Source of the DNA: Deroplatys truncata
Lineage: Eukaryota; Arthropoda; Insecta; Mantodea; Mantidae
Reading direction: 5' to 3'
DNA: 64,000 nt
Assembly: GCA_030765065.1 (NCBI GenBank)
Contig: CM060985.1
Span: 177,136,096 to 177,200,095, forward strand
Shown here: positions 7,301 to 51,335 of the stretch, piece by piece
How positions within the stretch are numbered: position 1 is the first letter of the stretch
Layout of the letters: each line of letters begins with the position of its first letter
Notes under the pieces: generated by a model
Database searches by the model: none
Told to the model about the DNA's origin: nothing
The model's input: only the letters and a program-made list of their open reading frames with translations
Program-made: the position numbers and the translations under genes

Positions 7301-7304
7301 ATGT

Positions 7305-11400: not shown

Positions 11401-11504
11401 AAGCTTTAAAATTAAAATAATGATGTGATACATTCATATGACCTTCTTTACCCTCAATCAGTTATTAGTGGGTATACAAACTATGTTTACTAAATAGGTT
11501 CCCT

Positions 11505-14432: not shown

Positions 14433-14568
14433 TTACTTTCTCTACTACGTATAGTAAGTAGGGGAAGTAAGTATTGTATTCGACCCAACATTTCGATACC
14501 GAAATTTCACCGGAAATACATGTTTTGAGACCCCCTGAATCCCAAAAAAGCATTTTTGGAAACATGTC

Positions 14569-14621
<53 letters not shown>

Positions 14622-15311
14622 ATGTCTGTAAACAGCATAACTCAGAAACATAACAGTCGGATAAACACCAAACTTGGTATTTAGGTTCAGTATCTTCCAG
14701 AGATACGACACGAAGGTTTACAATAAAATCGCCCCACCCCACATTACCCTTTATATGGAAGATTTTTCGAAAATTTTAATTTTCTCAAAAATGGCTCTAA
14801 CAATTTTGATTAAAATATCATAGGTTTAAGATATTTTCATGACAAATGAAATTTATATCTCGAATTTTCTGGGAAAGTCTCCAAAAGTATTCTTCATTGT
14901 GAACGAATTTTGATGGCAAACCATAAGAGACAGACAAAATTTTACTACACGAAAATGTAGATCGCGTTAAAGTACACAATGTTTGTCATATACATTTTTT
15001 GTTGAGTGAAGCATTTTCGAGATATTGCTTGTTATTCCCTTAAATTTTCCAATACTTATACTTTTTCTGAAATGGGAATTCGGTATTCATTTTTTGTCCA
15101 GGTGATGCAAAGAGAATGCAATACTGCACATAGCAACCAGCTCTTAAAACATTTGACTATCGCTTAAAGCCTACCAATTCCCCTTGCATCTACAAGAAAA
15201 TTAGCAATAAGATTAACATCTCGATTAACATGAAGCATATGCAGAATAATCGTTTGTAAAAGTAGTTTGTTCAAGAGTAGGGAAAGTCATGAGCGTGTAA
15301 CACATCAGATA
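14433..15311 (-). repeat. Q repeat, near full length
   Basis: It begins TTACTTTCTCTACTACGTAT and ends at about 15311 in a Q start motif. A (TG)n microsatellite of about 48 bases (14573-14620) has grown from the family's CA-rich tract. The roughly 100-codon family frame remains open through it (14428-14742). Confidence 0.8.
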
Positions 15312-32095: not shown

Positions 32096-32101
32096 ATCAC
32101 C
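32096..32101 (+). repeat. Target-site duplication, left (ATCACC)
   Basis: ATCACC directly precedes the first base of the palindromic element. The same hexamer, in the same orientation, directly follows its last base at 47808-47813. Confidence 0.85.
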
Positions 32102-32109
32102 AGTAGGTT

Positions 32110-32800
32110 AGTATGAGACCTTCTATATCAATTTATGGCTTTTTAATTGGCTTAATTGATTTAAATTGGCTGTAATTGGTCTTTCATGTAAGGCCGACCC
32201 AAGTACATGGTACCTTCTATATCAATTTATGGCTTTTTAATTGGTTCACTTGGTTCAAATGGTCTTTCAGGCAAAGGGGACCTATAGTGCATGGTACCTT
32301 CTGTATCAATTTATGGCTTTTAATTGGTTCACTTGGTTCATTTGGTCTTTCATGTAAGCCCGACCCAAGTACATGATACCTTCTATATCAATTTATGGCT
32401 TTTTAATTGGTTCGCATGGTTCAATTGGTCTTTCAGGCAAAGGGGACCTATAGTGCATGGTACCTTCTGTATCAATTTATGGCTTTTTAATTGGTTCACT
32501 TGGTTCATTTGGTCTTTCATGTAAGCCCGACCCAAGTACATGATACCTTCTATATCAATTTATGGCTTTTTAATTGGTTCGCATGGTTCAATTGGTCTTT
32601 CAGGCAAAGGGGACCTATAGTGCATGGTACCTTCTGTATGAATTTATGGCTTTTTAATTGGTTCACTTGGTTCATTTGGTCTTTCATGTAAGCCCGACCC
32701 AAGTACATGATACCTTCTATATCAATTTATGGCTTTTTAATTGGTTCGCATGGTTCAATTGGTCTTTCAGGCAAAGGGGACCTATAGTGCATGAGTCTTC
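32110..32800 (+). repeat. Subterminal tandem repeats, left
   Basis: About eight units of 83-84 bp, each containing ATCAATTTATGGCTTTTTAA. They alternate between two types: one with CCCGACCCAAGTACATG, the other with CAAAGGGGACCTATAGTGC. Together they give a 167-bp higher-order unit repeated four times. The first unit abuts the terminus. The 66-codon frames here are repeat artefacts. Confidence 0.9.
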
Positions 32801-33039
32801 TGGATATATTAATGGTTACTGCTGGAGTTGGTAATTGCGAGGGTCGCTTACATGTCCACGTGTTGACATTTACTTGAAGCATTTAAAGGCTCGTCCCTCC
32901 TCCTCGGCTTTGGGTGAGGGAGGTAATCAAAATAATGTCTGCATTTCCAGTCAGCTATGAGACATGATTCACCCCTATAATGTACACGGCGTTAATTCTA
33001 ATCATATACATCAAATAAAAAATACAAGTTTCAATTTTT

Positions 33040-33324
33040 GTGGCGAACGCTCCTAACAACTGTAGATGTTTAAAAAAATCGAAAGGTTTAATTTTCACCA
33101 TCCTACCGCGAGTTGTTGCTTTCTACGACATGAATAACATGCTACTTAAAACCGTGTATGTATACAGCGAGGTCTCCCTACACGTCAGTTTAAAAGACAA
33201 TCGCCTGAGTATTCTGTCGCGACCCCTCTGTCTCCCCTTCTGTATACAATTTAGCGGCTATCGACTCACCCTTCGCATAAGCGGGGAATCTATTCACGGT
33301 ATTGATTTTTTCCCTCTCATATAA
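33040..33324 (+). other. Open frame conserved in both arms, unclear
   Basis: Ninety-four codons open from a GTG (first ATG near 33130). The mirror frame at 46584-46868 differs by one residue. The peptide shows no domain. It could be an exon, or only open because the arms are nearly identical. Confidence 0.2.
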
Positions 33325-33544
33325 GGACTCCCACACCATTGTAAAAGTTCGCTTTATCTACGCTAGATGCCATAAGGTTACAGAACTAACATTTCTAATT
33401 CATATCTGGCACTATAGATGCCGGCAGAATCCGATCCGCTATTGATTTTTTCATTAAAAATACATGAGATTCAAACACATTAGCTAATTACAGTGTTACA
33501 AGCTGTATGTACAGTAAAATAAAAACGAATCGCATTTAAAAAAA

Positions 33545-33838
33545 ATTCTCATATGTTACACTCACATGACTTTCTCTACTCTTGTACAAACTTGAGTGGG
33601 TTGCCATGTGATGCACTCCATTCTCTTTACATGCCTAAGACATAAAAAAATGAATAACGAATTCGAGAAAAAATATAATTATTGGGGAATTTAAGGGAAT
33701 AACAAGCAATATCTCGAAAATAGTTCTCAATAAAACAGGGGGCTCAAAACATAAATATCCGGTGAAATCTCGTTATCGAATTTTCGGGTGGAATACCATA
33801 CTTCCCTTACTTACTCTTCGTAGTAGAGAAATTTAAAA
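33545..33838 (+). repeat. Deleted Q repeat in left arm
   Basis: It starts TTACACTCACATGACTTTC and ends CTTACTCTTCGTAGTAGAG. It has two internal deletions, after GTACAAACT and after CTCAATAAAACAG. The same deleted copy is in the right arm. Confidence 0.85.
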
Positions 33839-34391
33839 TACTTAGTTATAACAACGGGAAAGATGTCTTGTATCTTTTTTCCCACGAGGTGTATGATTCA
33901 TGCAATAAACAGTAATTGAACAATGTCTTTATTACTTAATTAACAGCACACCCAAAGGCAGCTGCAACCATCAATAAATTCCCTACCTTAAGTTACTTAA
34001 GTTCATGAAGATTTACAATTTCCTGTCTAAGGGCAATTTATCTTAACAGTTCTCACGAAAAATAGAAGTCCCACCCGTATACATGCTCACACCGTAAAAT
34101 AATACATGTTAACTTTTGACATTTATCATTCATTTAAAGCCTCCCTCTCAGATGCACGTGGGATATGGATCTCATCCCTATGCTGGCGGCAAGAGTTTCA
34201 TACTCATTTAGACGGTCTAGGTAATAATAATAATAATAATAATAATAAAAATAATTGCATACATTCCCAGATTGTCAAGGGCATGTGACATTCATCCCTC
34301 CCTGTTTCTCACCAATGAACTGCCAGAAGCTACTAAAATGATTTTTCTTTCCTTAGCCAATGCGGAGGGGGCGTAATATTGAAAGACGCAC

Positions 34392-34399
34392 TATATAAA
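34392..34399 (+). promoter_or_regulatory. TATA box of gene A, left
   Basis: TATATAAA, with CACAG (a weak initiator) about 30 bases downstream at 34421. No ATG occurs between there and the splice donor, which fits a non-coding first exon. Confidence 0.6.
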
Positions 34400-34563
34400 C
34401 CCTCTACATTGCCCGCATTTCACAGTTTTCATAAAGGGACTCTATACTTGCGACAGTTTCTGGACAGAAACCACAGAGTTTAAAAACCTTTTGAAGTGAT
34501 TCAATACTATTTTTGGAAAAGAGTTCTTCATTTTTATCATCAATTGGATATACACTTTGCAAG

Positions 34564-34626
34564 GTAAGAAATTGCTTATGTTGCCTTATCATTTAGCCAT
34601 TCATTTTTAATCATCCTTCATTGCAG
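34564..34626 (+). other. 63-bp intron in the 5' UTR of gene A, left
   Basis: The donor TTTGCAAG|GTAAGAAATT is near-consensus. The acceptor is CTTCATTGCAG|GACATT. The length is typical of small insect introns. A further acceptor-like CATACTCTAG lies just before the gene A ATG, so a second UTR intron is possible. Confidence 0.55.
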
Positions 34627-35011
34627 GACATTAAATATTTCTCTTTAAGCAACACATTTACAACTACTTAACTACACCAAGTGATACGTTTCATATATAT
34701 ATATATATAGGCAGGCTAAATGCATACACTGAGCGAGCTATATATTAATCATAAATCATCACATCGATTTCAGCAATCAATAATATCACGATAGAGATAA
34801 TCGAGACTGTAATACTCATGATGCTTCTAGAATTGATTTTTTACTTCCTCTATTTTTAATTAGCACCTGTAATGAAATTAAATTCAATTTTTAGATTCTT
34901 ACACATCTTCTGACTTTAATTTTTAAGCAAGTACATGCATTATTACATGAATAAGCTATCAAATCTGAAAGATTCCCTAATTTGAATGTTTCTTTTACGC
35001 ATACTCTAGAA

Positions 35012-35989
35012 ATGGAGAATACAGTGACAAGGAAACCCTACAGTGCAGCAGTCGCTTGCGACATCTCCATCATGGAGAAATTTCTAAAGGATTTAGTCCA
35101 CTTAGATCAACACTCATCACACTATCATAATCATCAGGAATTTAACCAATACACAGACACTGCACCAATTCTTTTCACCCGAAGACATTGCCCACCCTCT
35201 GAACCAAATCTTTTCACCCGAAGACATTGCCCACCCTCTGAACCAAATCTTTTCACCCGAAGACATTGCCCACCCTCTGAACCAAATCTTTTCACCCGAA
35301 GACATTCCCCACCCTCTGAACTAAATCTTTTCACCCGAAGACATTCCCCACCCTCTGAACCAAATCTTTTCACCAGAAGACATTGCCCACCCTCTGAACC
35401 AAATCTTTTCACCAGAAGACATTGCCCACCCTCTGAACCAAATCTTTTCACCCGAAGACATTCCCCACCCTCTGAACCAAATCTTTTCACCCGAAGACAT
35501 CAGCATTTCACAAACATCCGACACCAAAACATAAATCCATACGATTTGAATTCACAAACCACCACCAACACCACCACCACCACCACCGCTGCCACCACCG
35601 CTGCCACCACAACCACCACCCCCACTACCATCACCATTACTACACGTCCTAGATCAATATCATCCCAAACCACAATTCATATCATTGAGATTTCACCACC
35701 CCGCATTAATCACAATAACATAGAGATCATTGATCTCACTCACCCGACGCCGAAAAAAACAAAACACACCCATGCATTATCACCACAGTCACAGCATATT
35801 TCACCGCTATCAGGCATTATACCATTACAAGCATCACCACCCCATTTCAGAAATGTACACGCGATTCGAAGGCGTGTCACACGGAGAAGGCTAAATTTTG
35901 ATCATATGCAACCTCTCCTACCTCCATTACCCCCATTAGTCCGCATCCCCTCCTACGGTAGAAGAAAACACCTCAACAATCCACAATAA
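35012..35989 (+). CDS. Gene A (left): repeat protein with SIM-like motif
   Basis: 325 residues from the ATG at 35012. The open frame extends ten codons upstream to a TTG, but the ATG follows an acceptor-like CTAG and is preferred. A 48-residue N-terminus (MENTVTRKPYSAAVACD) is followed by eight 13-residue repeats (LFTRRHCPPSEPN type) and a partial ninth. Then come a Thr-rich tract (about residues 185-215), IEIIDLT (IIDLT at 239-243) followed by PTPKKTK, and a basic Pro-rich tail with RRRVTRRR. IIDLT resembles a SUMO-interaction motif and the basic runs resemble nuclear signals, so a nuclear role is inferred. There is no membrane segment and no known family. AATAAA (35985-35990) overlaps the stop codon. 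The A/C-rich strand bias is strong. Confidence 0.6.
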   Translation: MENTVTRKPYSAAVACDISIMEKFLKDLVHLDQHSSHYHNHQEFNQYTDTAPILFTRRHCPPSEPNLFTRRHCPPSEPNLFTRRHCPPSEPNLFTRRHSPPSELNLFTRRHSPPSEPNLFTRRHCPPSEPNLFTRRHCPPSEPNLFTRRHSPPSEPNLFTRRHQHFTNIRHQNINPYDLNSQTTTNTTTTTTAATTAATTTTTPTTITITTRPRSISSQTTIHIIEISPPRINHNNIEIIDLTHPTPKKTKHTHALSPQSQHISPLSGIIPLQASPPHFRNVHAIRRRVTRRRLNFDHMQPLLPPLPPLVRIPSYGRRKHLNNPQ

Positions 35990-36243
35990 AAACAAACAAA
36001 CAAACAAACAAAAACACAATCACTCTAAATACAGCATACATACATACATACATAAATACATACATACATACATACACGAAATACACAGCCAGCAATGTTC
36101 ACACTCACATTCATACATTCACAGTTTCATTAATATCTAACCTGGACTGGACCAAACTAAGGAAAGAAACAAGGTAACATTCATCAAGGCTATTATTTTT
36201 TTAAATATTAGAATCATAGAACAATATAAAAACATTACTGATA

Positions 36244-36435
36244 ATGGCCAATATGAGGTCCATCACATCTATTTCTCTACAGGAGAACACTTATTACAAC
36301 GATAAATGCAATTCTTTCAACACAATGTGTAATGTTTCAGGACTGCCAGCAACGATTCATCTTTACCACAGCAAGCAAAGCACTGTTGCAGACCTTAAGC
36401 TGTGTCTCCACAGCATCGCTCAATGCCTGCAATGA
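36244..36435 (+). CDS. Region B small ORF (left), unknown
   Basis: 63 codons from an ATG, identical in the two arms. The peptide ends ATIHLYHSKQSTVADLKL...QCLQ. An acceptor-like ATGTTTCAG|GACTGCC lies inside it, and a donor-like AAAAG|GTGAGAA follows at 36482. The actual transcript may therefore be spliced and this ORF may be only an exon. No family is recognised. Confidence 0.3.
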   Translation: MANMRSITSISLQENTYYNDKCNSFNTMCNVSGLPATIHLYHSKQSTVADLKLCLHSIAQCLQ

Positions 36436-36620
36436 ATAATACATCAATCATCAATTGTCTCAATCGATTTAAAATACAAAAGGTGAGAATTACTCTTACA
36501 TTATTTGAACATTGCTCTAGTTACTGTTTCTCCTAATAGCGACATTCCCATTAAAGATCATTCACGCATAAAAGACATCGCCTTATTATCTTTAATCCTA
36601 TAACGATGTATTTCTTTCAG

Positions 36621-36857
36621 GACACCTGGCATTTATCTTTCAAATCATGACAACTAATGGTTCATTTGTTATGTTTCAGACTCCTAGGAAAAGCAACAAA
36701 TAAGAAGAACGCCAAGAATACCATAATGATGCCCACTGAGTTCGCTTCTGAAAGAGCGAAATATCCACGTCTTCACACGTCGCCAGATGAAAACGTCACC
36801 AATGCTCCAAGATCAGCGAATCACAATGCAGCAGTGACAAATGGGATTATTCAGTGA
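36621..36857 (+). other. Exon-like segment of region B (left)
   Basis: It is bounded upstream by good acceptors (TTTCTTTCAG at 36611-36620, and ATGTTTCAG ending near 36679). The donor at 36482 would give a 138-bp intron to the first acceptor. After the second acceptor a basic peptide (KATNKKNAKNTIMMPTEF...) runs to TGA at 36855-36857. AATAAA-like signals occur near 37075. The mirror is at 43168-43404. The exon chain cannot be settled from sequence. Confidence 0.35.
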
Positions 36858-37141
36858 ATACTACGTTGTGACTGATAAAAAATGTAATAATGAAATCATA
36901 TACGCCTCATTATTTGTGTGGGGGAAAGGCTCATACTATTTGAAGAATATCTGATTATGAAACAGCAAGGGGACAGTTAATTCACTTAACTTATTGTATT
37001 ATCATATAATTTCATTGATTATGGAAATGAAACAAATAGACTTTTATCATATTGAACAAATGAATGCAGTAAAAAATAAAAACTTTATTTAATAGAAATA
37101 ACAGTGACATTTATTGACGACATTGTATTTATTCACTCATA

Positions 37142-37330
37142 TTGTATAAAGACATGCTAAATAGTTATTTTGCTGTAATGATTGACATGTATCAATGTAA
37201 AATCAATAAAGTGAAAAATAATAGATTTCACATCATTTCCAGGCATTATCATCCGCTTCAATACTTAGAGTACATTGGAAAATTTTATAAAGGTGATGGA
37301 TCCCAAACACAGCATACAAATATAACATAA
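37142..37330 (+). other. AT-rich open frame shared by both arms
   Basis: 62 codons from a TTG, with the first ATG at codon 5. The mirror is at 42695-42883 with an identical peptide (MYQCKINKVKNNRFHIISRH inside). No domain is seen, and it lies downstream of a likely polyadenylation region. Probably not a gene. Confidence 0.15.
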
Positions 37331-37469
37331 CGCTAGGATAGTCTGCGAACAGGTAGAGTTAGGCTCGCACGATTGACCGAGTTTGAAGAACAGTCTACCA
37401 TAGAATGTCTTAGGAATGGATTCGTCATGATTGTCATGGTTGGCTGCGTTTCACGGTTAAGTTATTTAC

Positions 37470-37765
37470 GTTAGTGGTTACGTTTAGTGGTTACATTGGT
37501 TACGTCTACTGGTTACGTGGTTAGTGGTTACGTTGGTTACGTGGTTAGTGGTTACGTTGGTTACGTGGTTAGTGGTTACGTTGGTTACGTGGTTAGTGGT
37601 TACGTTGGTTACGTGGTTACGTGGTTAGTGGTTACGTTGGTTACGTGGTTAGTGGTTACGTTGGTTAAGTTTAGTGGTTACGTTGGTTACGTGGTTAGTG
37701 GTTACGTTGGTTACGTGGTTAGTGGTTACGTTGGTTACGTGGTTACGTTGGTTAAGTTTAGTGAT
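37470..37765 (+). repeat. 24-bp minisatellite (left arm)
   Basis: The unit is GGTTACGTTGGTTACGTGGTTAGT, with shorter GGTTACGT sub-repeats. A 24-bp unit keeps long frames open (37487-37792), and those are artefacts. Confidence 0.9.
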
Positions 37766-38619
37766 CTTTCAGAGCAGGTAAGGCAGGGATAGATTGGCTT
37801 AGGATGGTCGCTTGTGGCTAGGTTAGACTACTCCAAAATATCTAAAACTAACCAATTCAGGGATTGTCCCTATCGGTCTCACATGTTAATTACTTAACAT
37901 ATAGAAGCTTACAAAATCTAGAAAAAAAAAGGACTGAAAGTATGTATATTTATTCTAATAATGGATAAGAAATGCTCATAAAGTATCAAAATCAGTGGAA
38001 AATACATTAACTCTTGAAATTAGAATAAATACTTGCTTTAATGCACTGACTTACAAATGAAATTCCACTCTCCATATTACAATAGCATCCTAAAAGCATG
38101 TCACAATTCCTCATTCACATCTTAAAATACACTGAAAGAGGCTCAAATTCTCTTACCAGAAACTTTGAAAATAGCTGCAACGCGCCTAAAGAACCATCAG
38201 AATACTGTAAAGATCTGAGGCAATATCATGAACATAACAGCTCCTGCTTATAAAACCAATCATAATTTTCCAAAAACCTGTGTCTAATAGCTCATAAACG
38301 CCAGCTAAATGCTCTACAGTTCCTATTCCAGTGGCTAAAATGCAAGCAAACATTTCTAAGAATACACTACAATGCCTCTTACAGGATGAAAAATATATTC
38401 GAAATACCTACATCAATCCCTCCGTCTGTATTTTGAAGGATACTTTAAAAAAACATCATAAAGCATATTCAAAATGTTCTGAAAATCTTAAAAAGAAATA
38501 TATGTATTAAACCTAAAATACACAAAGGATAAAATCTAAACATCAGGCTTTATTATGAATAGGGATAGAGGCTAGAAAGGCACATCAAAAGAAACACTTA
38601 AGTAAATGGTGAAAATATC

Positions 38620-38625
38620 TTTATT
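38620..38625 (-). terminator. Polyadenylation signal of gene C, left
   Basis: AATAAA on the minus strand, about 175 bases past the gene C stop. The mirror is at 41400-41405. Confidence 0.55.
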
Positions 38626-38799
38626 GAGAATTATTATTATTTGATTTTACATTAAGCAAACACTAGAGCATTGAACAGAAGCAAACAAAATTTTAACACA
38701 CTCATTTCATTCAAATGTGAAAGCTCTTTACTATACAGAGTTCAGTCTCAATCATGCTATAATCCCAATGCTCTTCAATACTAGGATGATCTTATTAAT

Positions 38800-39319
38800 C
38801 TAAATAGATAAGTCGTTTTTACCAGCTTCATGCGACATCATTAACAGTCTTAGTTGGTGTACTAAGTCATTAGGATCTGTACAGGGATATAAAATCTCAA
38901 TATTCGCCTTGGATACATCACCCACACTGGACGAGTTAACACTAAAATGTTTATTTTCACTCAGGTGATTATTCAGAGTTTCATCATCCAAAGACACTGC
39001 TCTTCTTACATCTAACATCCCTGGTCTTGAAGAGATTTCAGTAGCACTCAAGGGTGATCCAAGCGCTTCACAGCTTAACTCTAACATCCCTGGTCTTGAA
39101 TAGATTTCAGCATCACTGACGGGAGTTCTAAGTATTGCACACTTCAATGATTCATTACTACATCTTTGCCGGTGTTGTTTAAGTCTTGAAATAGATCTGT
39201 TTTTTTAAAATCCTACTGCACATACGACACTTGACAGAACGATTCTTCTCATGGGTAATATAGGAAAAATGAAGCTTTTCGTAAGCTGGCTGTATTTGAA
39301 TGTCAATAAGGGAATCCAT
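38800..39319 (-). pseudogene. Gene C (left): BED-like zinc-finger protein, frameshifted
   Basis: The first frame starts at the ATG at 39319 (MDSLIDIQIQPAYEKLHF) and carries KCRMCSR, the first Cys pair of a finger. It stops soon after an A7 run. A frame offset by one base carries SRLKQHRQRC, the His/Cys half, and then 115 codons to 38800. The two halves together give a C-x2-C, about 14 residues, H-x3-C pattern like BED fingers of transposases and domesticated transposon proteins. The C-terminal part has two YSRPGMLE/SSRPGMLD repeats and an acidic/polar tail. The A7 run is the same length in both arms. It is either a pseudogene, a programmed frameshift, or a shared assembly homopolymer error. 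Confidence 0.5.
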
Positions 39320-39461
39320 GATTGTTCTAGAATATCATATACTGTATATGATTTCGAAACTGCACCCGCATATGTCATCAGGAGACTGTAGAATTATTTG
39401 CTTATTTCCTAATTTTATCGGTAATCTCACATCATTGATAACCATAAACCTTGCAGTCAAG

Positions 39462-39469
39462 TTATATAA
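39462..39469 (-). promoter_or_regulatory. TATA-like box of gene C, left
   Basis: TTATATAA, about 145 bases upstream of the gene C ATG. The mirror is at 40557-40564. Confidence 0.4.
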
Positions 39470-39831
39470 GAAACGGGGCTATGACAGAATTCCACATTAA
39501 TTGCAGCTACTCTATTAATTACATAAGCTCACCATGCATTAAATGAAGTCTACCCTTACTTGTAATATTGGAGGATATATGACGCAACCTCATTGAATAT
39601 GTTAGCACTCAAATATGCAATGTTTCAAGACTAGAAGGTCACCCATACAGATCTTCCTATGAAGAACCATACTACAGGGAAAGTGAGCAGTACACAAGTT
39701 GAAGATTTCGAGACATGCTGAGGTCTCTAACGTTTCCAGGTTATAACATCTCACTTTAAAAGTCCCCAATGTAACGACTCATTCCACATTGCAAGAGGAG
39801 AGGAGAGTCAACGAGGATCAACCAAGCATTT

Positions 39832-40193
39832 AGAAGGTATGGAAATACTTTGACTACATTAGAAGGTATGGAAATACTTTGACTACATTAGAAGGTATGG
39901 AAATATATTGGTTACATTAGAAGGTATGGAAATACTTTGACTACATTAGAAGGTATGGAAATATATTGGTTACATTAGAAGGTATGGAATACTTTGACTA
40001 CATTAGAAGGTATGGAAATACTTTGACTACATTAGAAGGTATGGAAATATATTGGTTACATTAGAGGGTATGGAAATACTTTGACTACATTAGAAGGTAT
40101 GGAAATATATTGGTTACATTTACAAGGTATGGGAATATTTTGGTTACTTTGGTAGGTATATGGTATTATCTTATTACATTTAAGGACTTCACA
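39832..40193. repeat. Central spacer: 29-bp minisatellite
   Basis: The unit is ATTAGAAGGTATGGAAATAC plus TTTGACTAC, alternating with a variant ending ATATTGGTTAC. About ten units lie at 39832-40125, followed by decayed units to about 40193. This is the only part of the element without a mirror partner, so it is the loop of the palindrome. Confidence 0.9.
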
Positions 40194-40556
40194 AAATGCT
40201 CGGTTGATCCTCGTTGACTCTCCTCTCCTCTTGCTATGTGGAATGAGTCGTTACATTGGGGACTTTTAAAGTGAGATGTTATAACCTGGAAACGTTAGGG
40301 ACCTCAGCATGTCTCGAAATCTTCAACTTGTGTACTGCTCACTTTCCCTGTAGTATGGTTCTTCATAGGAAGATCTGTATGGGTGACCTTCTAGTCTTGA
40401 AACATTGCATATTCGAGTGCTAACATATTCAATGAGGTTGCGTCATATATCCTCCAATATTACAAGTAAGGGTAGACTTCATTTAATGCATGGTGAGCTT
40501 ATGTAATTAATGGAGTAGCTGCAATTAATGTGGAATTCTGTCATAGCCCCCTTTCT

Positions 40557-40564
40557 TATATAAC
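40557..40564 (+). promoter_or_regulatory. TATA-like box of gene C, right
   Basis: TTATATAA upstream of the ATG at 40706. The two gene C promoters face outward from the centre and lie about 1.1 kb apart. Confidence 0.4.
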
Positions 40565-40705
40565 TTGACTGCAAGGTTTATGGTTATCAATGATGTGAGA
40601 TTACCGATAAAATTAGGAAATAAGCAAATAATTCTACAGTCTCCTGATGACATATGCGGGTGCAGCTTCGAAATCATATACAGTATATGATATTCTAGAA
40701 CAATC

Positions 40706-41225
40706 ATGGATTCCCTTATTGACATTCAAATACAGCCAGCTTACGAAAAGCTTCATTTTTCCTATATTACCCATGAGAAGAATCGTTCTGTCAAGTGTCG
40801 TATGTGCAGTAGGATTTTAAAAAAACAGATCTATTTCAAGACTTAAACAACACCGGCAAAGATGTAGTAATGAATCATTGAAGTGTGCAATACTTAGAAC
40901 TCCCGTCAGTGATGCTGAAATCTATTCAAGACCAGGGATGTTAGAGTTAAGCTGTGAAGCGCTTGGATCACCCTTGAGTGCTACTGAAATCTCTTCAAGA
41001 CCAGGGATGTTAGATGTAAGAAGAGCAGTGTCTTTGGATGATGAAACTCTGAATAATCACCTGAGTGAAAATAAACATTTTAGTATTAACTCGTCCAGTG
41101 TGGGTGATGTATCCAAGGCGAATATTGAGATTTTATATCCCTGTACAGATCCTAATGACTTAGTACACCAACTAAGACTGTTAATGATGTCGCATGAAGC
41201 TGGTAAAAACGACTTTTCTATTTAG
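40706..41225 (+). pseudogene. Gene C (right): BED-like zinc-finger protein, frameshifted
   Basis: The mirror of 38800-39319. ATG at 40706, A7 run at 40819-40825, second frame to TAG at 41223-41225. The total length is the same 520 bases as the left copy. It differs from the left copy by Val/Ile and Leu/Phe changes near the C-terminus. A TATA-like box upstream and AATAAA at 41400 make a complete small transcription unit. No intron fits the break: the nearest GT-AG pair spans only about 20 bases. Confidence 0.5.
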
Positions 41226-41399
41226 ATTAATAAGATCATCCTAGTATTGAAGAGCATTGGGATTATAGCATGATTGAGACTGAACTCTGTATAATAAAGA
41301 GCTTTCACATTTGAATGAAATGAGTGTGTTAAAATTTTGTTTGCTTCTGTTCAATGCTCTAGTGTTTGCTTAATGTAAAATCAAATAATAATATTTCTC

Positions 41400-41405
41400 A
41401 ATAAA
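41400..41405 (+). terminator. Polyadenylation signal of gene C, right
   Basis: AATAAA in TTTCTCAATAAAGATATTTT, followed by a T-rich stretch, 175 bases past the stop. Confidence 0.55.
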
Positions 41406-42259
41406 GATATTTTCACCATTTACTTAAGTGTTTCTTTTGATTTGCCTTTCTAGCCTCTATCCCTATTCATAATAAAGCCTGATGTTTAGATTTTATCCTT
41501 TGTGTATTTTAGGTTTAATACATATATTTCTTTTTAAGATTTTCAGAACATTTTGAATATGCTTTATGATGTTTTTTTAAAGTATCCTTCAAAATACAGA
41601 CGGAGGGATTGATGTAGGTATTTCGAATATATTTTTCATCCTGTAAGAGGCATTGTAGTGTATTCTTAGAAATGTTTGCTTGCATTTTAGCCACTGGAAT
41701 AGGAACTGTAGAGCATTTAGCTGGCGTTTATGAGCTATTAGACACAGGTTTTTGGAAAATTATGATTGGTTTTATAAGCAGGAGCTGTTATGTTCATGAT
41801 ATTGCCTCAGATCTTTACAGTATTCTGATGGTTCTTTAGGCGCGTTGCAGCTATTTTCAAAGTTTCTGGTAAGAGAATTTGAGCCTCTTTCAGTGTATTT
41901 TAAGATGTGAATGAGGAATTGTGACATGCTTTTAGGATGCTATTGTAATATGGAGAGTGGAATTTCATTTGTAAGTCAGTGCATTAAAGCAAGTATTTAT
42001 TCTAATTTCAAGAGTTAATGTATTTTCCACTGATTTTGATACTTTATGAGCATTTCTTATCCATTATTAGAATAAATATATATACTTTCAGTCCTTTTTT
42101 TTTCTAGATTTTGTAAGCTTCTATATGTTAAGTAATTAACATGTGAGACCGATAGGGACAATCCCTGAATTGGTTAGTTTTAGGTATTTTGGAGTAGTCT
42201 AACCTAGCCACAAGCGACCATCCTAAGCCAATCTATCCCTGCCTTACCTGCTCTGAAAG

Positions 42260-42560
42260 ATCACTAAACTTAACCAACGTAACCACGTAACCAACGTAAC
42301 CACTAACCACGTAACCAACGTAACCACTAACCACGTAACCAACGTAACCACTAAACTTAACCAACGTAACCACTAACCACGTAACCAACGTAACCACTAA
42401 CCACGTAACCACGTAACCAACGTAACCACTAACCACGTAACCAACGTAACCACTAACCACGTAACCAACGTAACCACTAACCACGTAACCAACGTAACCA
42501 CTAACCACGTAACCAGTAAACGTAACCAATGTAACCACTAAACGTAACCACTAACGTAAA
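42260..42560 (-). repeat. 24-bp minisatellite (right arm)
   Basis: The mirror of the left-arm array, with the same length and order of units and single-base differences at its edge. Confidence 0.9.
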
Positions 42561-43167
42561 TAACTTAACCGTGAAACGCAGCCAACCATGACAATCATGA
42601 CGAATCCATTCCTAAGACATTCTATGGTAGACTGTTCTTCAAACTCGGTCAATCGTGCGAGCCTAACTCTACCTGTTCGCAGACTATCCTAGCGTTATGT
42701 TATATTTGTATGCTGTGTTTGGGATCCATCACCTTTATAAAATTTTCCAATGTACTCTAAGTATTGAAGCGGATGATAATGCCTGGAAATGATGTGAAAT
42801 CTATTATTTTTCACTTTATTGATTTTACATTGATACATGTCAATCATTACAGCAAAATAACTATTTAGCATGTCTTTATACAATATGAGTGAATAAATAC
42901 AATGTCGTCAATAAATGTCACTGTTATTTCTATTAAATAAAGTTTTTATTTTTTACTGCATTCATTTGTTCAATATGATAAAAGTCTATTTGTTTCATTT
43001 CCATAATCAATGAAATTATATGATAATACAATAAGTTAAGTGAATTAACTGTCCCCTTGCTGTTTCATAATCAGATATTCTTCAAATAGTATGAGCCTTT
43101 CCCCCACACAAATAATGAGGCGTATATGATTTCATTATTACATTTTTTATCAGTCACAACGTAGTAT

Positions 43168-43404
43168 TCACTGAATAATCCCATTTGTCACTGCTGCATT
43201 GTGATTCGCTGATCTTGGAGCATTGGTGACGTTTTCATCTGGCGACGTGTGAAGACGTGGATATTTCGCTCTTTCAGAAGCGAACTCAGTGGGCATCATT
43301 ATGGTATTCTTGGCGTTCTTCTTATTTGTTGCTTTTCCTAGGAGTCTGAAACATAACAAATGAACCATTAGTTGTCATGATTTGAAAGATAAATGCCAGG
43401 TGTC
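43168..43404 (-). other. Exon-like segment of region B (right)
   Basis: The mirror of 36621-36857, with the same acceptors and terminal open frame. The 66-residue reading is identical in both arms. Confidence 0.35.
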
Positions 43405-43589
43405 CTGAAAGAAATACATCGTTATAGGATTAAAGATAATAAGGCGATGTCTTTTATGCGTGAATGATCTTTAATGGGAATGTCGCTATTAGGAGAAACA
43501 GTAACTAGAGCAATGTTCAAATAATGTAAGAGTAATTCTCACCTTTTGTATTTTAAATCGATTGAGACAATTGATGATTGATGTATTAT

Positions 43590-43781
43590 TCATTGCAGGC
43601 ATTGAGCGATGCTGTGGAGACACAGCTTAAGGTCTGCAACAGTGCTTTGCTTGCTGTGGTAAAGATGAATCGTTGCTGGCAGTCCTGAAACATTACACAT
43701 TGTGTTGAAAGAATTGCATTTATCGTTGTAATAAGTGTTCTCCTGTAGAGAAATAGATGTGATGGACCTCATATTGGCCAT
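43590..43781 (-). CDS. Region B small ORF (right), unknown
   Basis: The mirror of 36244-36435, with the same 63 residues and the same splice-like signals. Identity across the arms means it adds no independent evidence of selection. Confidence 0.3.
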   Translation of the reverse strand: MANMRSITSISLQENTYYNDKCNSFNTMCNVSGLPATIHLYHSKQSTVADLKLCLHSIAQCLQ

Positions 43782-44035
43782 TATCAGTAATGTTTTTATA
43801 TTGTTCTATGATTCTAATATTTAAAAAAATAATAGCCTTGATGAATGTTACCTTGTTTCTTTCCTTAGTTTGGTCCAGTCCAGGTTAGATATTAATGAAA
43901 CTGTGAATGTATGAATGTGAGTGTGAACATTGCTGGCTGTGTATTTCGTGTATGTATGTATGTATGTATTTATGTATGTATGTATGTATGCTGTATTTAG
44001 AGTGATTGTGTTTTTGTTTGTTTGTTTGTTTGTTT

Positions 44036-44896
44036 TTATTGTGGATTGTTGAGGTGTTTTCTTCTACCGTAGGAGGGGATGCGGACTAATGGGGGTAATG
44101 GAGGTAGGAGAGGTTGCATATGATCAAAATTTAGCCTTCTCCGTGTGACACGCCTTCGAATCGCGTGTACATTTCTGAAATGGGGTGGTGATGCTTGTAA
44201 TGGTATAATGCCTGATAGCGGTGAAATATGCTGTGACTGTGGTGATAATGCATGGGTGTGTTTTGTTTTTTTCGGCGTCGGGGGAGTGAGATCAATGATC
44301 TCTATGTTATTGTGATTAATGCGGAGTGGTGAAATCTCAATGATATGAATTGTGGTTTGGGATGATATTGATCTAGGACGTGTAGTAATGGTGATGGTAG
44401 TGGGGGTGGTGGTTGTGGTGGCAGCGGTGGTGGCAGCGGTGGTGGTGGTGGTGGTGTTGGTGGTGGTTTGTGAATTCAAATCGTATGGATTTATGTTTTG
44501 GTGTCGGATGTTTGTGAAATGCTGATGTCTTCGGGTGAAAAGATTTGGTTCAGAGGGTGGGGAATGTCTTCGGGTGAAAAGAATTGGTTCAGAGGGTGGG
44601 CAATGTCTTCTGGTGAAAAGATTTGGTTCAGAGGGTGGGGAATGTCTTCGGGTGAAAAGATTTAGTTCAGAGGGTGGGGAATGTCTTCGGGTGAAAAGAT
44701 TTAGTTCAGAGGGTGGGGAATGTCTTTGGGTGAAAAGAATTGGTGCAGTGTCTGTGTATTGGTTAAATTCCTGATGATTATGATAGTGTGATGAGTGTTG
44801 ATCTAAGTGGACTAAATCCTTTAGAAATTTCTCCATGATGGAGATGTCGCAAGCGACTGCTGCACTGTAGGGTTTCCTTGTCACTGTATTCTCCAT
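44036..44896 (-). CDS. Gene A (right): shorter repeat allele
   Basis: 286 residues from the mirror ATG at 44896. It is identical in design to the left copy but has five full 13-residue repeats plus the partial one, against eight. The 39-residue difference is exactly three units. Unit variants also differ (FTQRH in the first, SEPI in the fourth), so the arrays have changed independently. The SIM-like IIDLT is kept, followed by PPTPKKTK instead of HPTPKKTK. The frame is intact in both copies despite the repeat changes, which suggests selection or recent origin. Confidence 0.6.
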   Translation of the reverse strand: MENTVTRKPYSAAVACDISIMEKFLKDLVHLDQHSSHYHNHQEFNQYTDTAPILFTQRHSPPSELNLFTRRHSPPSELNLFTRRHSPPSEPNLFTRRHCPPSEPILFTRRHSPPSEPNLFTRRHQHFTNIRHQNINPYDLNSQTTTNTTTTTTAATTAATTTTTPTTITITTRPRSISSQTTIHIIEISPLRINHNNIEIIDLTPPTPKKTKHTHALSPQSQHISPLSGIIPLQASPPHFRNVHAIRRRVTRRRLNFDHMQPLLPPLPPLVRIPSYGRRKHLNNPQ

Positions 44897-45275
44897 TTCT
44901 AGAGTATGCGTAAAAGAAACATTCAAATTAGGGAATCTTTCAGATTTGATAGCTTATTCATGTAATAATGCATGTACTTGCTTAAAAATTAAAGTCAGAA
45001 GATGTGTAAGAATCTAAAAATTGAATTTAATTTCATTACAGGTGCTAATTAAAAATAGAGGAAGTAAAAAATCAATTCTAGAAGCATCATGAGTATTACA
45101 GTCTCGATTATCTATATCGTGATATTATTGATTTCTGAAATCGATGTGATGATTTATGATTAATATATAGCTCGCTCAGTGTATGCATTTAGCCTGCCTA
45201 TATATATATGAAACGTAACACTTGGTGTAGTTAAGTAGTTGTAAATGTGTTGCTTAAAGAGAAATATTTAATGTC

Positions 45276-45338
45276 CTGCAATGAAGGATGATTACAAATG
45301 AATGGCTAAATGATAAGGCAACATAAGCAATTTCTTAC
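45276..45338 (-). other. 63-bp intron in the 5' UTR of gene A, right
   Basis: The same donor and acceptor as in the left arm. The 62-codon plus-strand ORF at 45310-45498 runs antisense over this exon-intron junction. It is identical in both arms and is probably incidental. Confidence 0.55.
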
Positions 45339-45502
45339 CTTGCAAAGTGTATATCCAATTGATGATAAAAATGAAGAACTCTTTTCCAAAAATAGTATTG
45401 AATCACTTCAAAAGGTTTTTAAACTCTGTGGTTTCTGTCCAGAAACTGTCGCAAGTATAGAGTCCCTTTATGAAAACTGTGAAATGCGGGCAATGTAGAG
45501 GG

Positions 45503-45510
45503 TTTATATA
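45503..45510 (-). promoter_or_regulatory. TATA box of gene A, right
   Basis: The mirror of the left-arm TATATAAA (TTTATATA on the plus strand), with the same spacing to the exon. Confidence 0.6.
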
Positions 45511-45650
45511 GTGCGTCTTTCAATATTACGCCCCCTCCGCATTGGCTAAGGAAAGAAAAATCATTTTATTAGCTTCTGGCAGTTCATTGGTGAGAAACAG
45601 GGAGGGATGGATGTCACATGCCCTTGACAATCTGGGAATGTATGCAATTA

Positions 45651-45688
<38 letters not shown>

Positions 45689-46073
45689 TAGACCGTCTAA
45701 ATGAGTATGAAACTCTTGCCGCCAGCATAGGGATGAGATCCATATCCCACGTGCATCTGAGAGGGAGGCTTTAAATGAATGATAAATGTCAAAAGTTAAC
45801 ATGTATTATTTTACGGTGTGAGCATGTATACGGGTGGGACTTCTATTTTTCGTGAGAACTGTTGAGATAAATTGCCCTTAGACAGGAAATTGTAAATCTT
45901 CATGAACTTAAGTAACTTAAGGGAGGGAATTTATTGATGGTTGCAGCTGCCTTTGGGTGTGCTGTTAATTAAGTAATAAAGACATTGTTCAATTACTGTT
46001 TATTGCATGAATCATACACCTCGTGGGAAAAAAGATACAAGACATCTTTCCCGTTGTTATAACTAAGTATTTT

Positions 46074-46368
46074 AAATTTCTCTACTACGAAGAGTAAGTA
46101 AGGGAAGTATGGTATTCCACCCGAAAATTCGATAACGAGATTTCACCGGATATTTATGTTTTGAGCCCCCTGTTTTATTGAGAACTATTTTCGAGATATT
46201 GCTTGTTATTCCCTTAAATTCCCCAATAATTATATTTTTTCTCGAATTCGTTATTCATTTTTTTATGTCTTAGGCATGTAAAGAGAATGGAGTGCATCAC
46301 ATGGCAACCCACTCAAGTTTGTACAAGAGTAGAGAAAGTCATGTGAGTGTAACATATGAGAATTTTTT
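46074..46368 (-). repeat. Deleted Q repeat in right arm
   Basis: The mirror of 33545-33838 with the same two internal deletions. The insertion and its decay therefore happened before the arms were duplicated, or have been homogenised since. Confidence 0.85.
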
Positions 46369-47109
46369 TTAAATGCGATTCGTTTTTATTTCACTGTACA
46401 TACAGCTTGTAACACTGTAATTAGCTAATGTGTTTGAATCTCATGTATTTTTAATGAAAAAATCAATAGCGGATCGGATTCTGCCGGCATCTATAGTGCC
46501 AGATATGAATTAGAAATGTTAGTTCTGCAACCTTATGGCATCTAGCGTAGATAAAGCGAACTTTTACAATGGTGTGGGAGTCCTTATATGAGAGGGAAAA
46601 AATCAATACCGTGAATAGATTCCCCGCTTATGCGAAGGGTGAGTCGATAGCCGCTAAATTGTATACAGAAAGGGAGACAGAGGGGTCGCGACAGAATACT
46701 CAGGCGATTGTCTTTTAAACTGACGTGTAGGGAGACCTCGCTGTATACATACACGGTTTTAAGTAGCATGTTATTCATGTCGTAGAAAGCAACAACTCGC
46801 GGTAGGATGGTGAAAATTAAACCTTTCGATTTTTTTAAACATCTACAGATGTTAGGAGCGTTCGCCACAAAAATTGAAACTTGTATTTTTTATTTGATGC
46901 ATATGATTAGAGTTAACGCCGTGTACTTTATAGGGGTGAATCATGTCTCATAGCTGACTGGAAATGCAGACATTATTTTGATTACCTCCCTCACCCAAAG
47001 CCGAGGAGGAGGGACGAGCCTTTAAATGCTTCAAGTAAATGTCAACACGTGGACATGTAAGCGACCCTCGCAATTACCAACTCCAGCAGTAACCATTAAT
47101 ATATCCAGA

Positions 47110-47800
47110 AGACTCATGCACTATAGGTCCCCTTTGCCTGAAAGACCAATTGAACCATGCGAACCAATTAAAAAGCCATAAATTGATATAGAAGGTATCA
47201 TGTACTTGGGTCGGGCTTACATGAAAGACCAAATGAACCAAGTGAACCAATTAAAAAGCCATAAATTGATACAGAAGGTACCATGCACTATAGGTCCCCT
47301 TTGCCTGAAAGACCAATTGAACCATGCGAACCAATTAAAAAGCCATAAATTGATATAGAAGGTATCATGTACTTGGGTCGGGCTTACATGAAAGACCAAA
47401 TGAACCAAGTGAACCAATTAAAAAGCCATAAATTGATACAGAAGGTACCATGCGCTATAGGTCCCCTTTGCCTGAAAGACCAATTGAACCATGCGAACCA
47501 ATTAAAAAGCCATAAATTGATATAGAAGGTATCATGTACTTGGGTCGGGCTTACATGAGAGACCAAATGAACCAAGTGAACCAATTAAAAAGCCATAAAT
47601 TGATACAGAAGGTACCATGCACTATAGGTCCCCTTTGCCTGAAAGACCAATTGAACCATGCGAACCAATTAAAAAGCCATAAATTGATATAGAAGGTATC
47701 ATGTACTTGGGTCGGCCTTACATGAAAGACCAATTACAGCCAATTTAAATCAATTAAGCCAATTAAAAAGCCATAAATTGATATAGAAGGTCTCATACTA
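47110..47800 (-). repeat. Subterminal tandem repeats, right
   Basis: The mirror of the left array, with the same alternating A/B order and the same number of 167-bp dimers (four). Confidence 0.9.
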
Positions 47801-47807
47801 ACCTACT

Positions 47808-47813
47808 ATCACC
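47808..47813 (+). repeat. Target-site duplication, right (ATCACC)
   Basis: Directly follows the right terminus (...AACCTACT) and matches 32096-32101. Confidence 0.85.
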
Positions 47814-48340: not shown

Positions 48341-50220
48341 TCAGAGGGCGGCCGGATCAGGAGGCACAACAACAGCGGGCAGGATCCCTACATTTTCCTG
48401 TTGAAACTCCCCAATGGCAGCTGGTAAAATTGTCTTCCCTTCCCCCTGCAGGCTGCACGTCCCACTAGGAGGCCCAGACACGGAGACTGCCTCCATTCCC
48501 GGAGATAGTGTTACTGAGAACATGCTCTTTCCCTGCCATGTAACGCAGAGACTCCCGCCCACACTTGCAGCCCTAGACAACCAACCAGATGAAATGTGAG
48601 GCGAAACGACAAAAGAGAAGAAATGGAGGCACAGAAAATTTGGGGGATGTATTTAACCTTTCCAGGATTCATCTAATGACCTGGGGAAACCCTAGAAAAA
48701 GACTATGGGCCAGGAAGATTCGTCGCAGGAATTAAGTTCACGATCATCGAAATCCCCTCCCACCTGTAGACTTCCACATTCTACTGGAGGGTCCAGACTC
48801 AAACACTGCCCACATTGCCGGGGACAGTGTTAATGAGAGCAACCTTTTCCCTTCCAAATGCAAAGACAACCATCGGCACTTGCTGCCCTAGACAATCAGG
48901 CAGACGAAAGATGAACTGAAACGACGAAAGAGAAGAAATGGAGGCACAGAAAATTTGGGGGATGTAATTAACCTTTCCAGAGTTCATCTAGCGAACCGTG
49001 GAAACACAAGAAAAAAATCTGTTGTGTTACACTCTGACTTTCTCTACTCTTGTGCAAACTATTTTTACAAACGCTTATTCTCCATCTACTTCATGTTAAT
49101 CGAGATGTTAATCTTATTGCTAATTTTCTTGTAGATGCAAGGGGAATTGATAGGCTTTAAGCGATAGTCAAATGTTTAAGAGCTGGTTGCTATGTGGAGT
49201 TTTCCATTCTCTTTGCATTACCAGGACACAAAAAACAATAACGAATTTCCATTTGAGAAAAAGCATAACTATTGGAAAATTTAAGGGAATAACAAGCAAT
49301 ATCTCCAAAATGGTTCACTCAACAAAAAAATGTATATAACATAAATTGTGCATTTTAATGCGATCTACATTTTCTGTGTAGTAAAATTTTGTCTATGTCT
49401 TATGGTTTACTAGCTATGCAAAAGTCGTTCACAATGAAGAATACTTTTGGAGAAATTCCCAGAAAATTCGAGATATACAATTCATTTGTCATAAAAATCT
49501 CTTAAAAGTATGGTATTTAATTAAAAATTCTTGGATCCATTTTTGAGGAAATTAAAATTTTCAAAAATTTTCCATGTAAAGGGTAATCTTGGTTGGGGGG
49601 ATTTGCTTGAAAACCTTCGTGTCGCATCTCTGGAAGATACTGAACCTAAATACAAGTTTGGTGTTTATCTGACTTCGTTTCTGAGTTATGTTGTTCACAG
49701 ACAGACACATAGACGGACATGTTTCAAAAAATACCTTTATTAGATCCAGGGGGTCTCAAAACATGTATTTCCAGTGAAATCTCGGTATCGAATTTTTGGG
49801 TGGAATACAATACTTCCCCTACTTACTATACGTAGTCAGGAAAGTCGACCGCGAGAATTGAATCCACGATCAAACCCCGCACCCGCAGTAAGCTTGCATA
49901 TCCTATTATAGGGCCCAGATCCGGAGACCGCCCCCATTGCCTGGAACAGTGTTACTGAGAGCATCCTTTTCCCCTGCTATGCAACGTAGAGACTACCGCC
50001 GGCAGTTGCAATCCTAGACAACCAAGCAGACGAAAGGTGAAGTGAAACGAGAAAGGAGAAGAAATTAAGGCACAGAAAATTTAGGGGATGTAATTAACCT
50101 TTCCAGAATTCACCTAGGAAACCGGGGAAACCTTAGAAGAAAGCTATGGGTCAGAAAGTTTTACCGCAGGATTCAACCCACGATCATCCAAATTCCCGCA
50201 ATATTTTGAACAATATCATT
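48341..50220 (+). repeat. Tandem array of about 0.3-kb units, split by a Q repeat
   Basis: Three related units lie at about 48374-48715, 48716-49012 and 49851-50200. Each has a CAGTGTTA-type stretch (AGTGTTACTGAGA), a CCTAGACAACCA stretch, GAGAAGAAATGGAGGCACAG and TTAACCTTTCCAG, and closes with a decayed CACGATCATC. A Q repeat interrupts the array between units 2 and 3, with loss of about 8 bases of array. Confidence 0.75.
49013..49843 (+). repeat. Q repeat inserted in the tandem array
   Basis: It runs from AATCTGTTGTGTTACACTC to ACTTACTATACGTAG. Array sequence resumes directly with TCAGGAAAGTCGACCGCG. In this copy the last TAGAGAAAGT is replaced by array sequence. Confidence 0.85.
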
Positions 50221-50544: not shown

Positions 50545-51335
50545 GTGGAATTATTGTATTCGGCCCAAAACCGTGGTGTCGAGATTTCACCGGAAATATA
50601 TATTTTAAGGTACCCTGAAACCAAAAAAGTCAGTTTTAGAGAAAGATCTGTATGTTTGTGTTCGTGAACAGCATAATTCAAAAACGAAAAGTCGGATAAA
50701 CACCAAATTTGGTATTTAGATTTAGGATCTTCCAGAGATGCGACACGAAGGTTTCCAAGAAAATTCCCCTACCCCAGATTACCCTTTACATGGAACATTT
50801 ATCGAAAAGTTTAATTTTCTCAAAAATAGCTCGTAACGATTTTGCTTAAAATATCATATGTTTAAGATATTTTCATCACAAATGAAATGTATGTCTCGAA
50901 TTTTCTAGGAATGTGCTCCAAAAGTATTCTTCATTGTGAACGACTTTTGAATAATTGGTAAACCAAAATTTTACTATACACAAAATGTAGATCGCGTTAA
51001 AATACAGAATTTATGACCTATACATTTTTTTGTAGAGTGAACCATTTTCGAGATATTTCTTGTTATTCCCTTAAATGTTCCAGTACTTATACTTTTCTCA
51101 AATTCGTTATTCATTTTTTTTCCTGGACATACAAAGAGAATTGAATGCGCCACATAGCAACCAGCTCTTAAAACATTTGACTATCCCTTAAAGCCTACCA
51201 TATTCCCTTGTATCTACAAAAAAATTAGCAATAAGATTAACATCTCGATTAATATGAAGCATATGGAGAATAAGCGTTTATAAAAATAATAATAAGAGTA
51301 GAGATAGTCATGTGAATGTAACTCATCAGAATTTT
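50545..51335 (-). repeat. Q repeat, minus strand
   Basis: It opens with a decayed 3' end (ATACTATGTAGTGGAATTATTG) and runs through all landmarks to the Q start at about 51335. Confidence 0.75.

What the first reader, a model, noticed from the sequence alone, without database searches (positions are those of the whole stretch)
32102..47807. A 15.7-kb element that is almost all palindrome, with a 6-bp target-site duplication
Seen: two arms of about 7.7 kb in inverted orientation end at exactly matching termini (AGTAGGTTAG...). ATCACC lies immediately outside both ends in direct orientation, and the flanks then diverge. This makes the palindrome a transposed unit. Known: Polinton/Maverick elements are 15-20 kb, make 6-bp duplications and have, as I recall, termini starting 5'-AG; they are thought to replicate by protein priming. 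Inference: a one-ended, inverted-duplicated derivative, like the long-palindrome defective genomes of protein-primed linear DNA, that was integrated in trans. Transposons with TIRs covering about 98% of their length and carrying several genes per arm are not something I know to be described.
Basis: partly seen in the sequence, partly recalled or inferred. Interest (0 to 1): 0.92.

Follow-up and report, generated by a model that had tools for sequence, protein, structure and literature searches.

The report
Palindromic satellites of Polinton transposons
A large, gene-carrying mobile element that is almost a perfect mirror image of itself exists in many copies in an arthropod-like genome, apparently riding on a virus-like transposon of the same genome, and its two halves seem to be made identical again in each round of spread.

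Summary
32102-47807 is a 15.7-kb palindrome (arms about 99% identical; one-way 29-bp tandem array in the centre) between perfect 6-bp target duplications. Copies of the host repeat it struck show the empty site. It is not a one-off: of 102 loci for its inner gene, 48 have two hits, all inverted pairs, and 57 of 82 loci for its outer gene are inverted pairs (capped lists). The genome also holds ordinary Polintons with the same ends and 6-bp duplications, encoding integrase, ATPase, capsid and polymerase B. The arm's outer 1.9 kb is the polymerase-side end of that Polinton; the rest was not found in intact ones. The two arms of a copy are sisters in 17 of 19 copies (mean 0.33% apart, 1.51% between copies) and do not sort by side of the loop. 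Divergent, apparently old palindromes have diverged arms. So arms appear to be equalised at replication, not mainly after insertion. Best reading: a long-lived palindromic satellite, replicated and integrated in trans by Polinton enzymes through a self-complementary (hairpin) intermediate. The hairpin and the trans helper are inferred.

The parts
32096..32101 (.). Left target-site duplication ATCACC
47808..47813 (.). Right target-site duplication ATCACC
32102..39831 (+). Left arm of the palindrome
40194..47807 (-). Right arm (inverted copy, about 99% identical)
39830..40193 (.). Asymmetric centre (loop): one-way 29-bp tandem array, 39830-40142, plus unpaired edge
   Evidence: by counts of one 11-base unit the array runs one way in 18 of 19 copies (only partly seen in six of them), the 19th has no spacer
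32102..32794 (+). Left terminal region: AGTAGGTTAG terminus and 83/167-bp tandem repeats; the outer 250-500 bp is shared with both ends of the Polintons
47115..47807 (-). Right terminal region, the same
32102..34056 (+). Left outer part of the arm (1 to about 1955); beyond the terminal repeats it matches only the PolB-side end of the ordinary copies
45852..47807 (-). The same in the right arm (approximate inner limit)
   Evidence: mirrored with the arm alignment
35012..35989 (+). ORF1, 325 aa, with 13-aa repeats (39-bp array); no Pfam family
   Evidence: median dN/dS 0.46 across relatives
44036..44896 (-). ORF1, second copy, 286 aa (three repeat units fewer)
38800..39334 (-). Gene for a BED-zinc-finger-like protein (193 aa stop to stop in other copies), here broken by a 1-nt shift in an A run
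   Evidence: (zf-BED E 0.0035, 17.8 bits, below Pfam's cut-off of 20.6)
40691..41225 (+). BED-like gene, second copy, with the same shift
37511..37754 (+). 24-bp tandem array in the left arm
42271..42515 (-). 24-bp tandem array in the right arm

Best explanation
The unit is one copy of a multi-copy family of palindromic, non-autonomous Polinton (Maverick) elements, that is, satellites. Each copy is two inverted ~7-8 kb arms joined by a short array. Shown: same termini as resident Polintons, 6-bp target duplications, an arm end copied from the PolB-side end, genes of its own, many dispersed copies, arms nearest to each other within most copies, diverged arms in divergent copies. Inferred: Polinton integrase inserts them and Polinton protein-primed PolB copies them in trans. 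A displaced strand is self-complementary and folds into a 7-8 kb hairpin with the array as loop. That hairpin is a ready-made duplex with one Polinton origin at its open end. Repair of the stem, or copying one arm round the loop, makes the arms identical in every cycle. After insertion the arms drift apart.
For: Same AGTAG... ends and exact 6-bp TSDs in palindromic and ordinary copies alike (10 of 10 two-ended copies, one of them, K, inside a TA repeat; the window; T and I exact, P 5 of 6, O not resolved). Empty sites at 38 other places. Polinton proteins scanned from A and G, with matching frames in C and H; 55 PolB hits of 112 scored have 95% identity or more, 21 of the 55 in frames of at least 1179 aa with no stop flagged (my count). 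Beyond the terminal repeats the arm's outer part matches only the PolB side. None of 102 BED loci lies within 25 kb of the 55 PolB hits, and of 82 ORF1 loci only the one in copy H does. 17 of 19 copies have sister arms; same-side and opposite-side distances are both 1.510%. A gene module is swapped in both arms alike in K and Lc. Arm mismatches are 0.11-0.52% in seven copies, while arm identity is 97.8%, about 94.5% and 89.7-95% in three divergent palindromes.
Against: No replication intermediate, transcript or read data were available; trans-mobilisation rests on shared ends and duplication size. In three copies (F, J, cL036) another copy is nearer than the partner arm, and two copies (F, cL030) are unresolved in the tree. 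Mismatches are patchy in F and borderline in W and J, so some conversion after insertion is not excluded. That the divergent palindromes are old insertions is inferred from their divergence. BED shows no constraint (pN/pS 0.91). PolB was named from two recalled sequence motifs; Pfam, NCBIfam, PHROGs and PDB gave no polymerase hit. Ends and TSDs of L054-L056 were not fetched.
Confidence: 0.72

Rival explanations
1. The palindromes are trans-mobilised Polinton satellites, but the arms are kept alike by ordinary gene conversion between the arms inside the chromosome, as in the large palindromes of Y chromosomes (recalled).
For: Arms within a copy are sisters in 17 of 19 copies. Mismatches are unevenly spread in F (p<0.001) and borderline in W (0.049) and J (0.055). 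In F, J and cL036 the arm-arm distance exceeds that to another copy.
Against: Divergent palindromes have arms at about 94.5% (L055) and 89.7-95% (L056), so conversion in place does not hold identity there. Mismatches fit an even spread in B, K, Lc and M.
Confidence: 0.17
2. Repeated independent snap-back formation: each palindrome was made anew from an ordinary element by template switching, then inserted once.
For: Centres differ between subfamilies: 29-bp array in window-like copies, 31-bp arrays in both directions in L054, no spacer in L040.
Against: 18 of 19 window-like copies share one join position and array family, and they carry an inner region not found in the ordinary copies or near 55 PolB hits. 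Formation anew would need an ordinary donor carrying ORF1 and BED; only copy H holds ORF1, and its PolB is truncated.
Confidence: 0.07
3. Foldback-like DNA transposon whose long TIRs grew by the usual TIR-extension process, moved by an unrelated cut-and-paste transposase.
For: TIRs carry tandem repeats, as in Foldback elements (recalled); one 9-kb Galileo copy is nearly all TIR (PMC4168063, passages).
Against: Ends and 6-bp TSDs equal those of Polintons in the same genome; Galileo makes 7-8 bp TSDs. The only transposase-associated domain seen is a weak BED match.
Confidence: 0.02
4. Assembly or library artefact (inverted chimera, or arms collapsed by polishing).
For: No reads could be inspected.
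Against: Many loci with their own flanks and exact TSDs, differing array lengths and arm-specific mismatches, plus empty sites.
Confidence: 0.02

Closest known systems
Polinton/Maverick self-synthesising transposons (polintoviruses, adintovirus-like)
   Same: Termini beginning AG, shared TIR, 6-bp TSD, 15-16 kb size; outer sequence of a resident Polinton
   Different: No integrase, polymerase or capsid gene found in the arm; both ends are the same (PolB-side) end; whole element palindromic; genes of its own
Foldback and Galileo elements
   Same: Very long TIRs; one Galileo copy is 9021 bp with TIRs of 4246 and 4680 bp (PMC4168063, passages)
   Different: Galileo: P superfamily, 7-8 bp TSD, no transposase segment in that copy; here a multi-copy palindromic family with a gene under likely selection, and Polinton ends
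Palindromic defective genomes of protein-primed viruses and self-complementary AAV genomes (recalled)
   Same: Inverted-duplicate genome that can fold into its own duplex
   Different: Those are short-lived or engineered; here the form is inherited over subfamily-level divergence and integrated with TSDs
Palindromic rDNA of Tetrahymena and Y-chromosome palindromes (recalled)
   Same: Long inverted arms with a small non-palindromic centre; arm homogenisation
   Different: Not transposable; homogenised inside one locus

Membership tests
[quoted passage not shown]
   No frame long enough for it in the arm (Pfam of all six frames, though Pfam also failed to name the PolB of the ordinary copies); present in those by motif
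Polinton/Maverick | Retroviral-type (rve) integrase gene | tested here: not met
   None in six frames of the arm; rve E 3.8e-12 in ordinary copy A
Polinton/Maverick | TIRs with AG termini | tested here: met
Polinton/Maverick | 6-bp target-site duplication (rve-INT: PMC12220804, passages) | tested here: met
   13 of 15 two-ended copies exact (one of them in a TA repeat), one 5 of 6, one not resolved
Non-autonomous derivative of a Polinton (works like one) | Resident ordinary element with the same ends and outer sequence | tested here: met
   A, C, G; PolB is one long frame in A and G, split in C
Non-autonomous derivative of a Polinton (works like one) | Movement depends on that element's proteins | not testable with these tools
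   needs an experiment or helper-loss comparison
Foldback/Galileo | 7-8 bp TSD and P-type transposase (Galileo) | tested here: not met
   6-bp TSDs; no transposase family in the arm frames by Pfam

The most novel reading that the evidence does not exclude
Palindromy is an inherited genome form, not damage: a lineage of satellite elements, with its own genes, whose linear genome is self-complementary and is rebuilt from a single arm at each replication. It thereby needs only one type of origin and no separate second-strand synthesis, lives off Polinton enzymes (perhaps also its capsid), and may outnumber its helper (102 BED loci against 55 close PolB hits, both from capped lists).
Probability: 0.45. 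Interest if true: 0.92.

Novelty: new variant of a known kind. Interest (0 to 1): 0.82.

Why it matters
How Polintons replicate is, to my knowledge, inferred from sequence (recalled). A family whose two arms are reset to identity in each cycle leaves a record of that replication in many insertions, and makes a hairpin or panhandle step testable by sequence and by looking for the extrachromosomal form. It also suggests that a long palindrome, usually unstable, can be a successful and lasting genome plan, and that Polintons have satellites, for which my paper searches showed no description.

Tried and rejected
Pfam on all six frames of one arm found nothing above a cut-off; ORF1 and the three other small frames tried gave no family. 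Bases 1-14998 of the window, one frame per strand only, gave no Pfam hit. IMG/VR scans with ORF1 and with the Polinton capsid protein found no relative. PDB searches with the 364-aa tail-fibre-like protein and with PolB gave nothing. An ordinary donor of ORF1 and BED was sought and not found: no BED locus (of 102) lay within 25 kb of 55 PolB hits, and only copy H's ORF1 did. The 7.5 kb fetched from a second Polinton family (71-72% PolB identity) matched the window arm nowhere and copy K over about 200 bp at 75%. Four BED single-hit loci were opened: one is a palindrome, one has a rearranged second arm, two show no second copy in the 4.5 kb fetched. Selection on BED was tested and not found. 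Rejected: chance, artefact, Foldback membership, membership in Polinton proper by gene content.
Full report
OBSERVATION. The window lies in a 4.29-Gb assembly of 818 contigs. Of five contig ends looked at, one consists of CCTAA repeats (100 units in 500 bases), the telomere type usual in arthropods (recalled); the other four show no such array. The element runs from 32102 to 47807. Its arms are 98-99% complementary in large ungapped blocks, and ATCACC stands directly outside both ends. The centre holds a one-way 29-bp array. The joined flanks without the element match 38 other places at 80-89% across the junction, while the window itself matches only as two separate halves (40 of 480 candidates scored). 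So the element went into a copy of a dispersed host repeat.

RELATIVES IN THE SAME GENOME. A search with the terminal 211 bases found many places, often as inverted pairs 11.5-16.5 kb apart (40 of 661 candidates scored). Ten two-ended copies were fetched in halves. All ten have exact 6-bp duplications, one of them (K) inside a TA repeat and so not informative. Six are palindromes along nearly their whole length (B, F, J, K, Lc, M); four (A, C, G, H) share only TIRs of about 250-385 bp. Of four further copies, T and I have exact duplications, P has 5 of 6, and O's true ends were not resolved.

THE FOUR ORDINARY COPIES ARE POLINTONS. Proteins taken from copies A and G match an rve integrase (3.8e-12), the poxvirus A32-type ATPase (7.5e-07), a phospholipase A2-like domain (4.4e-13), a phage tail-fibre N-terminal domain (6e-06), a double-jelly-roll capsid protein (1.9e-109), and, below cut-off, the adenovirus core protein X (2.9e-04) and adenovirus protease (0.0033). 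C and H show the matching frames but were not scanned apart; PolB is split in C and truncated in H. The 1214-1238 aa frame of A and G has YMDTDSF and NNAVYGK motifs (seen in G), which I know as family B polymerase motifs C and B; no library named it. Of 112 scored hits (20814 candidates) to its C-terminal part, 55 have 95% identity or more, 21 of these in open frames of at least 1179 aa with no stop flagged; a second family lies at about 71-72% (my counts).

ANATOMY OF THE PALINDROME. The first ~1955 bases of each arm match the PolB-side end of A, C and G; the capsid side shares only the terminal repeat region. Copy H is a recombinant: arm 1 to about 4471 joined to a PolB-truncated Polinton body. 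The remaining arm is not in A, C or G. It carries ORF1 (325 aa, with 13-aa repeats) and, nearer the centre and on the other strand, a BED-finger-like gene (zf-BED E 0.0035, under Pfam's cut-off). None of 102 BED loci lies within 25 kb of the 55 PolB hits; of 82 ORF1 loci only copy H's does. Copies K and Lc lack ORF1 and carry another module in both arms, including ~550 bp homologous to the Polinton. L054 has ORF1 but no match to the BED region, and a centre of 31-bp repeats. So neither gene is present in all palindromes examined; what these share is Polinton-end sequence and the palindrome itself (the outer ends of L054-L056 were not fetched).

NUMBERS. Searching with the BED protein, 150 of 6647 candidates were scored; they form 102 loci, and all 48 two-hit loci are divergent inverted pairs. 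Of the 54 single-hit loci four were opened: one is a palindrome, one has a rearranged second arm, two show no second copy in the 4.5 kb fetched. Searching with the ORF1 C-terminus (175 matches, not all listed), the 146 hits I used form 82 loci: 57 convergent pairs, one ++-, 22 singles, and two clusters of direct copies. All are lower bounds from capped lists.

ARMS EVOLVE IN CONCERT. In six arm segments and five or seven copies, the two arms of a copy differ by 0-1.06%, different copies by 0-4.6% (one segment of 50 bp had no differences at all, and close pairs of copies, such as F and J, are in places as near to each other as their own arms are). With 12 more copies, found as hits of the window's own central segment, 38 arm ends of about 1 kb were compared. 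The loop array has a direction, so each arm can be called 5' or 3' of it in 18 copies. Mean within-copy distance is 0.325%, between-copy 1.512%, same-side 1.510%, opposite-side 1.510%. In the tree 17 of 19 copies have sister arms, 11 with strong support; cL030 and F are unresolved; the side label needs 18 changes for 18 copies, 14 of them forced by well-supported branches. In F, J and cL036 another copy is nearer than the partner arm. Thus the two arms are not inherited as two separate sequences: one becomes the template of the other.

WHEN ARE THEY EQUALISED? Arm mismatches in seven copies are 0.11-0.52% and fit an even spread in B, K, Lc and M; F is clearly patchy, W and J borderline. Three divergent palindromes have arms at 97.8% (L054), about 94.5% (L055) and 89.7-95% (L056) while matching the window arm at 89-92%, 85-89% and 72-84%. 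If these are old insertions, as their divergence suggests, old copies drift, and equalisation happens mainly at or before insertion. They also show that the palindromic plan outlived subfamily divergence and, in L054, replacement of the centre.

SELECTION. ORF1's C-terminal 162 codons across 28 sequences (18 of them picked to span the range of identities; one is the window's second arm; some partial) give a median dN/dS of 0.46 (275 pairs with pS above 0.08), and 24 of 28 stretches are open. Decay after insertion biases this upward, so constraint during spread is likely. BED gives pN/pS 0.91 between ungapped copies, and one-arm differences are 12 nonsynonymous to 1 synonymous. One frame shift is shared by both arms of W, B and L033, another by both arms of L040; L031 has two different ones. 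So copies with a broken BED gene have spread: it is dispensable in cis, or free to decay.

MECHANISM. Shown: transposed unit, Polinton ends, resident Polintons, concerted arms, diverged arms in divergent copies. Inferred: integration by Polinton integrase and protein-primed copying by PolB in trans. A displaced palindromic strand folds on itself; its stem ends in a complete Polinton terminus, so it equals the panhandle that adenovirus-type replication makes from short TIRs (recalled), extended to the whole arm. Mismatch repair in the stem, or synthesis round the loop, would make both arms alike. The rival, conversion in the chromosome, is weakened by the divergent copies but not excluded for part of the effect.

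KNOWN OR NEW. Paper searches for Polintons together with palindromes, non-autonomous forms, inverted duplication or fold-back showed no description of such elements; only listings and starts of abstracts were seen there, one search returned no paper, and subscription papers are mostly missing from the library. Passages were seen in PMC6431247, PMC4168063, PMC2836005 and PMC12220804. The nearest published form that I saw is one Galileo copy. I file it as a new variant of a known kind: non-autonomous and Polinton-like in ends and duplications, not a Polinton by gene content.

Noticed in passing
G000, 71-72% PolB hits such as C2:33256144-33257241 (L053): A second Polinton family with many long open PolB frames; whether it has palindromic satellites of its own is unknown.
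   Followed up: partly
L019/L020 (copy H): Recombinant between a palindrome arm (to about 4471) and a PolB-truncated Polinton body, with exact 6-bp duplication, so the chimera itself was probably inserted.
   Followed up: partly
G000:C16:353.93 and 354.00 Mb: Two palindromes whose ORF1 hits lie exactly 76,379 bases apart with equal scores: a direct segmental duplication or a haplotype left in the assembly.
   Followed up: no
G000:C15:105.68-107.26 Mb: Five BED hits, all on one strand and without listed partner; the one opened (L049) shows only one inner segment in 4.5 kb.
   Followed up: partly
L040 (C16:475245266): Palindrome that has lost the spacer almost completely.
   Followed up: no
window 117-1421, minus strand: 434-aa frame with cysteine-rich knuckles like a LINE gag-type protein (recalled resemblance); this frame was not given to Pfam on its own.
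   Followed up: no
window 49234-49391 and 50964-51121; 49713-49845 and 51788-51920: Other inverted repeats (80-84%) just outside the element, perhaps another transposon.
   Followed up: no
window 34389-34400 and 34562-35011: A TATAAA-like box and possible splice signals upstream of ORF1, seen by eye only.
   Followed up: no
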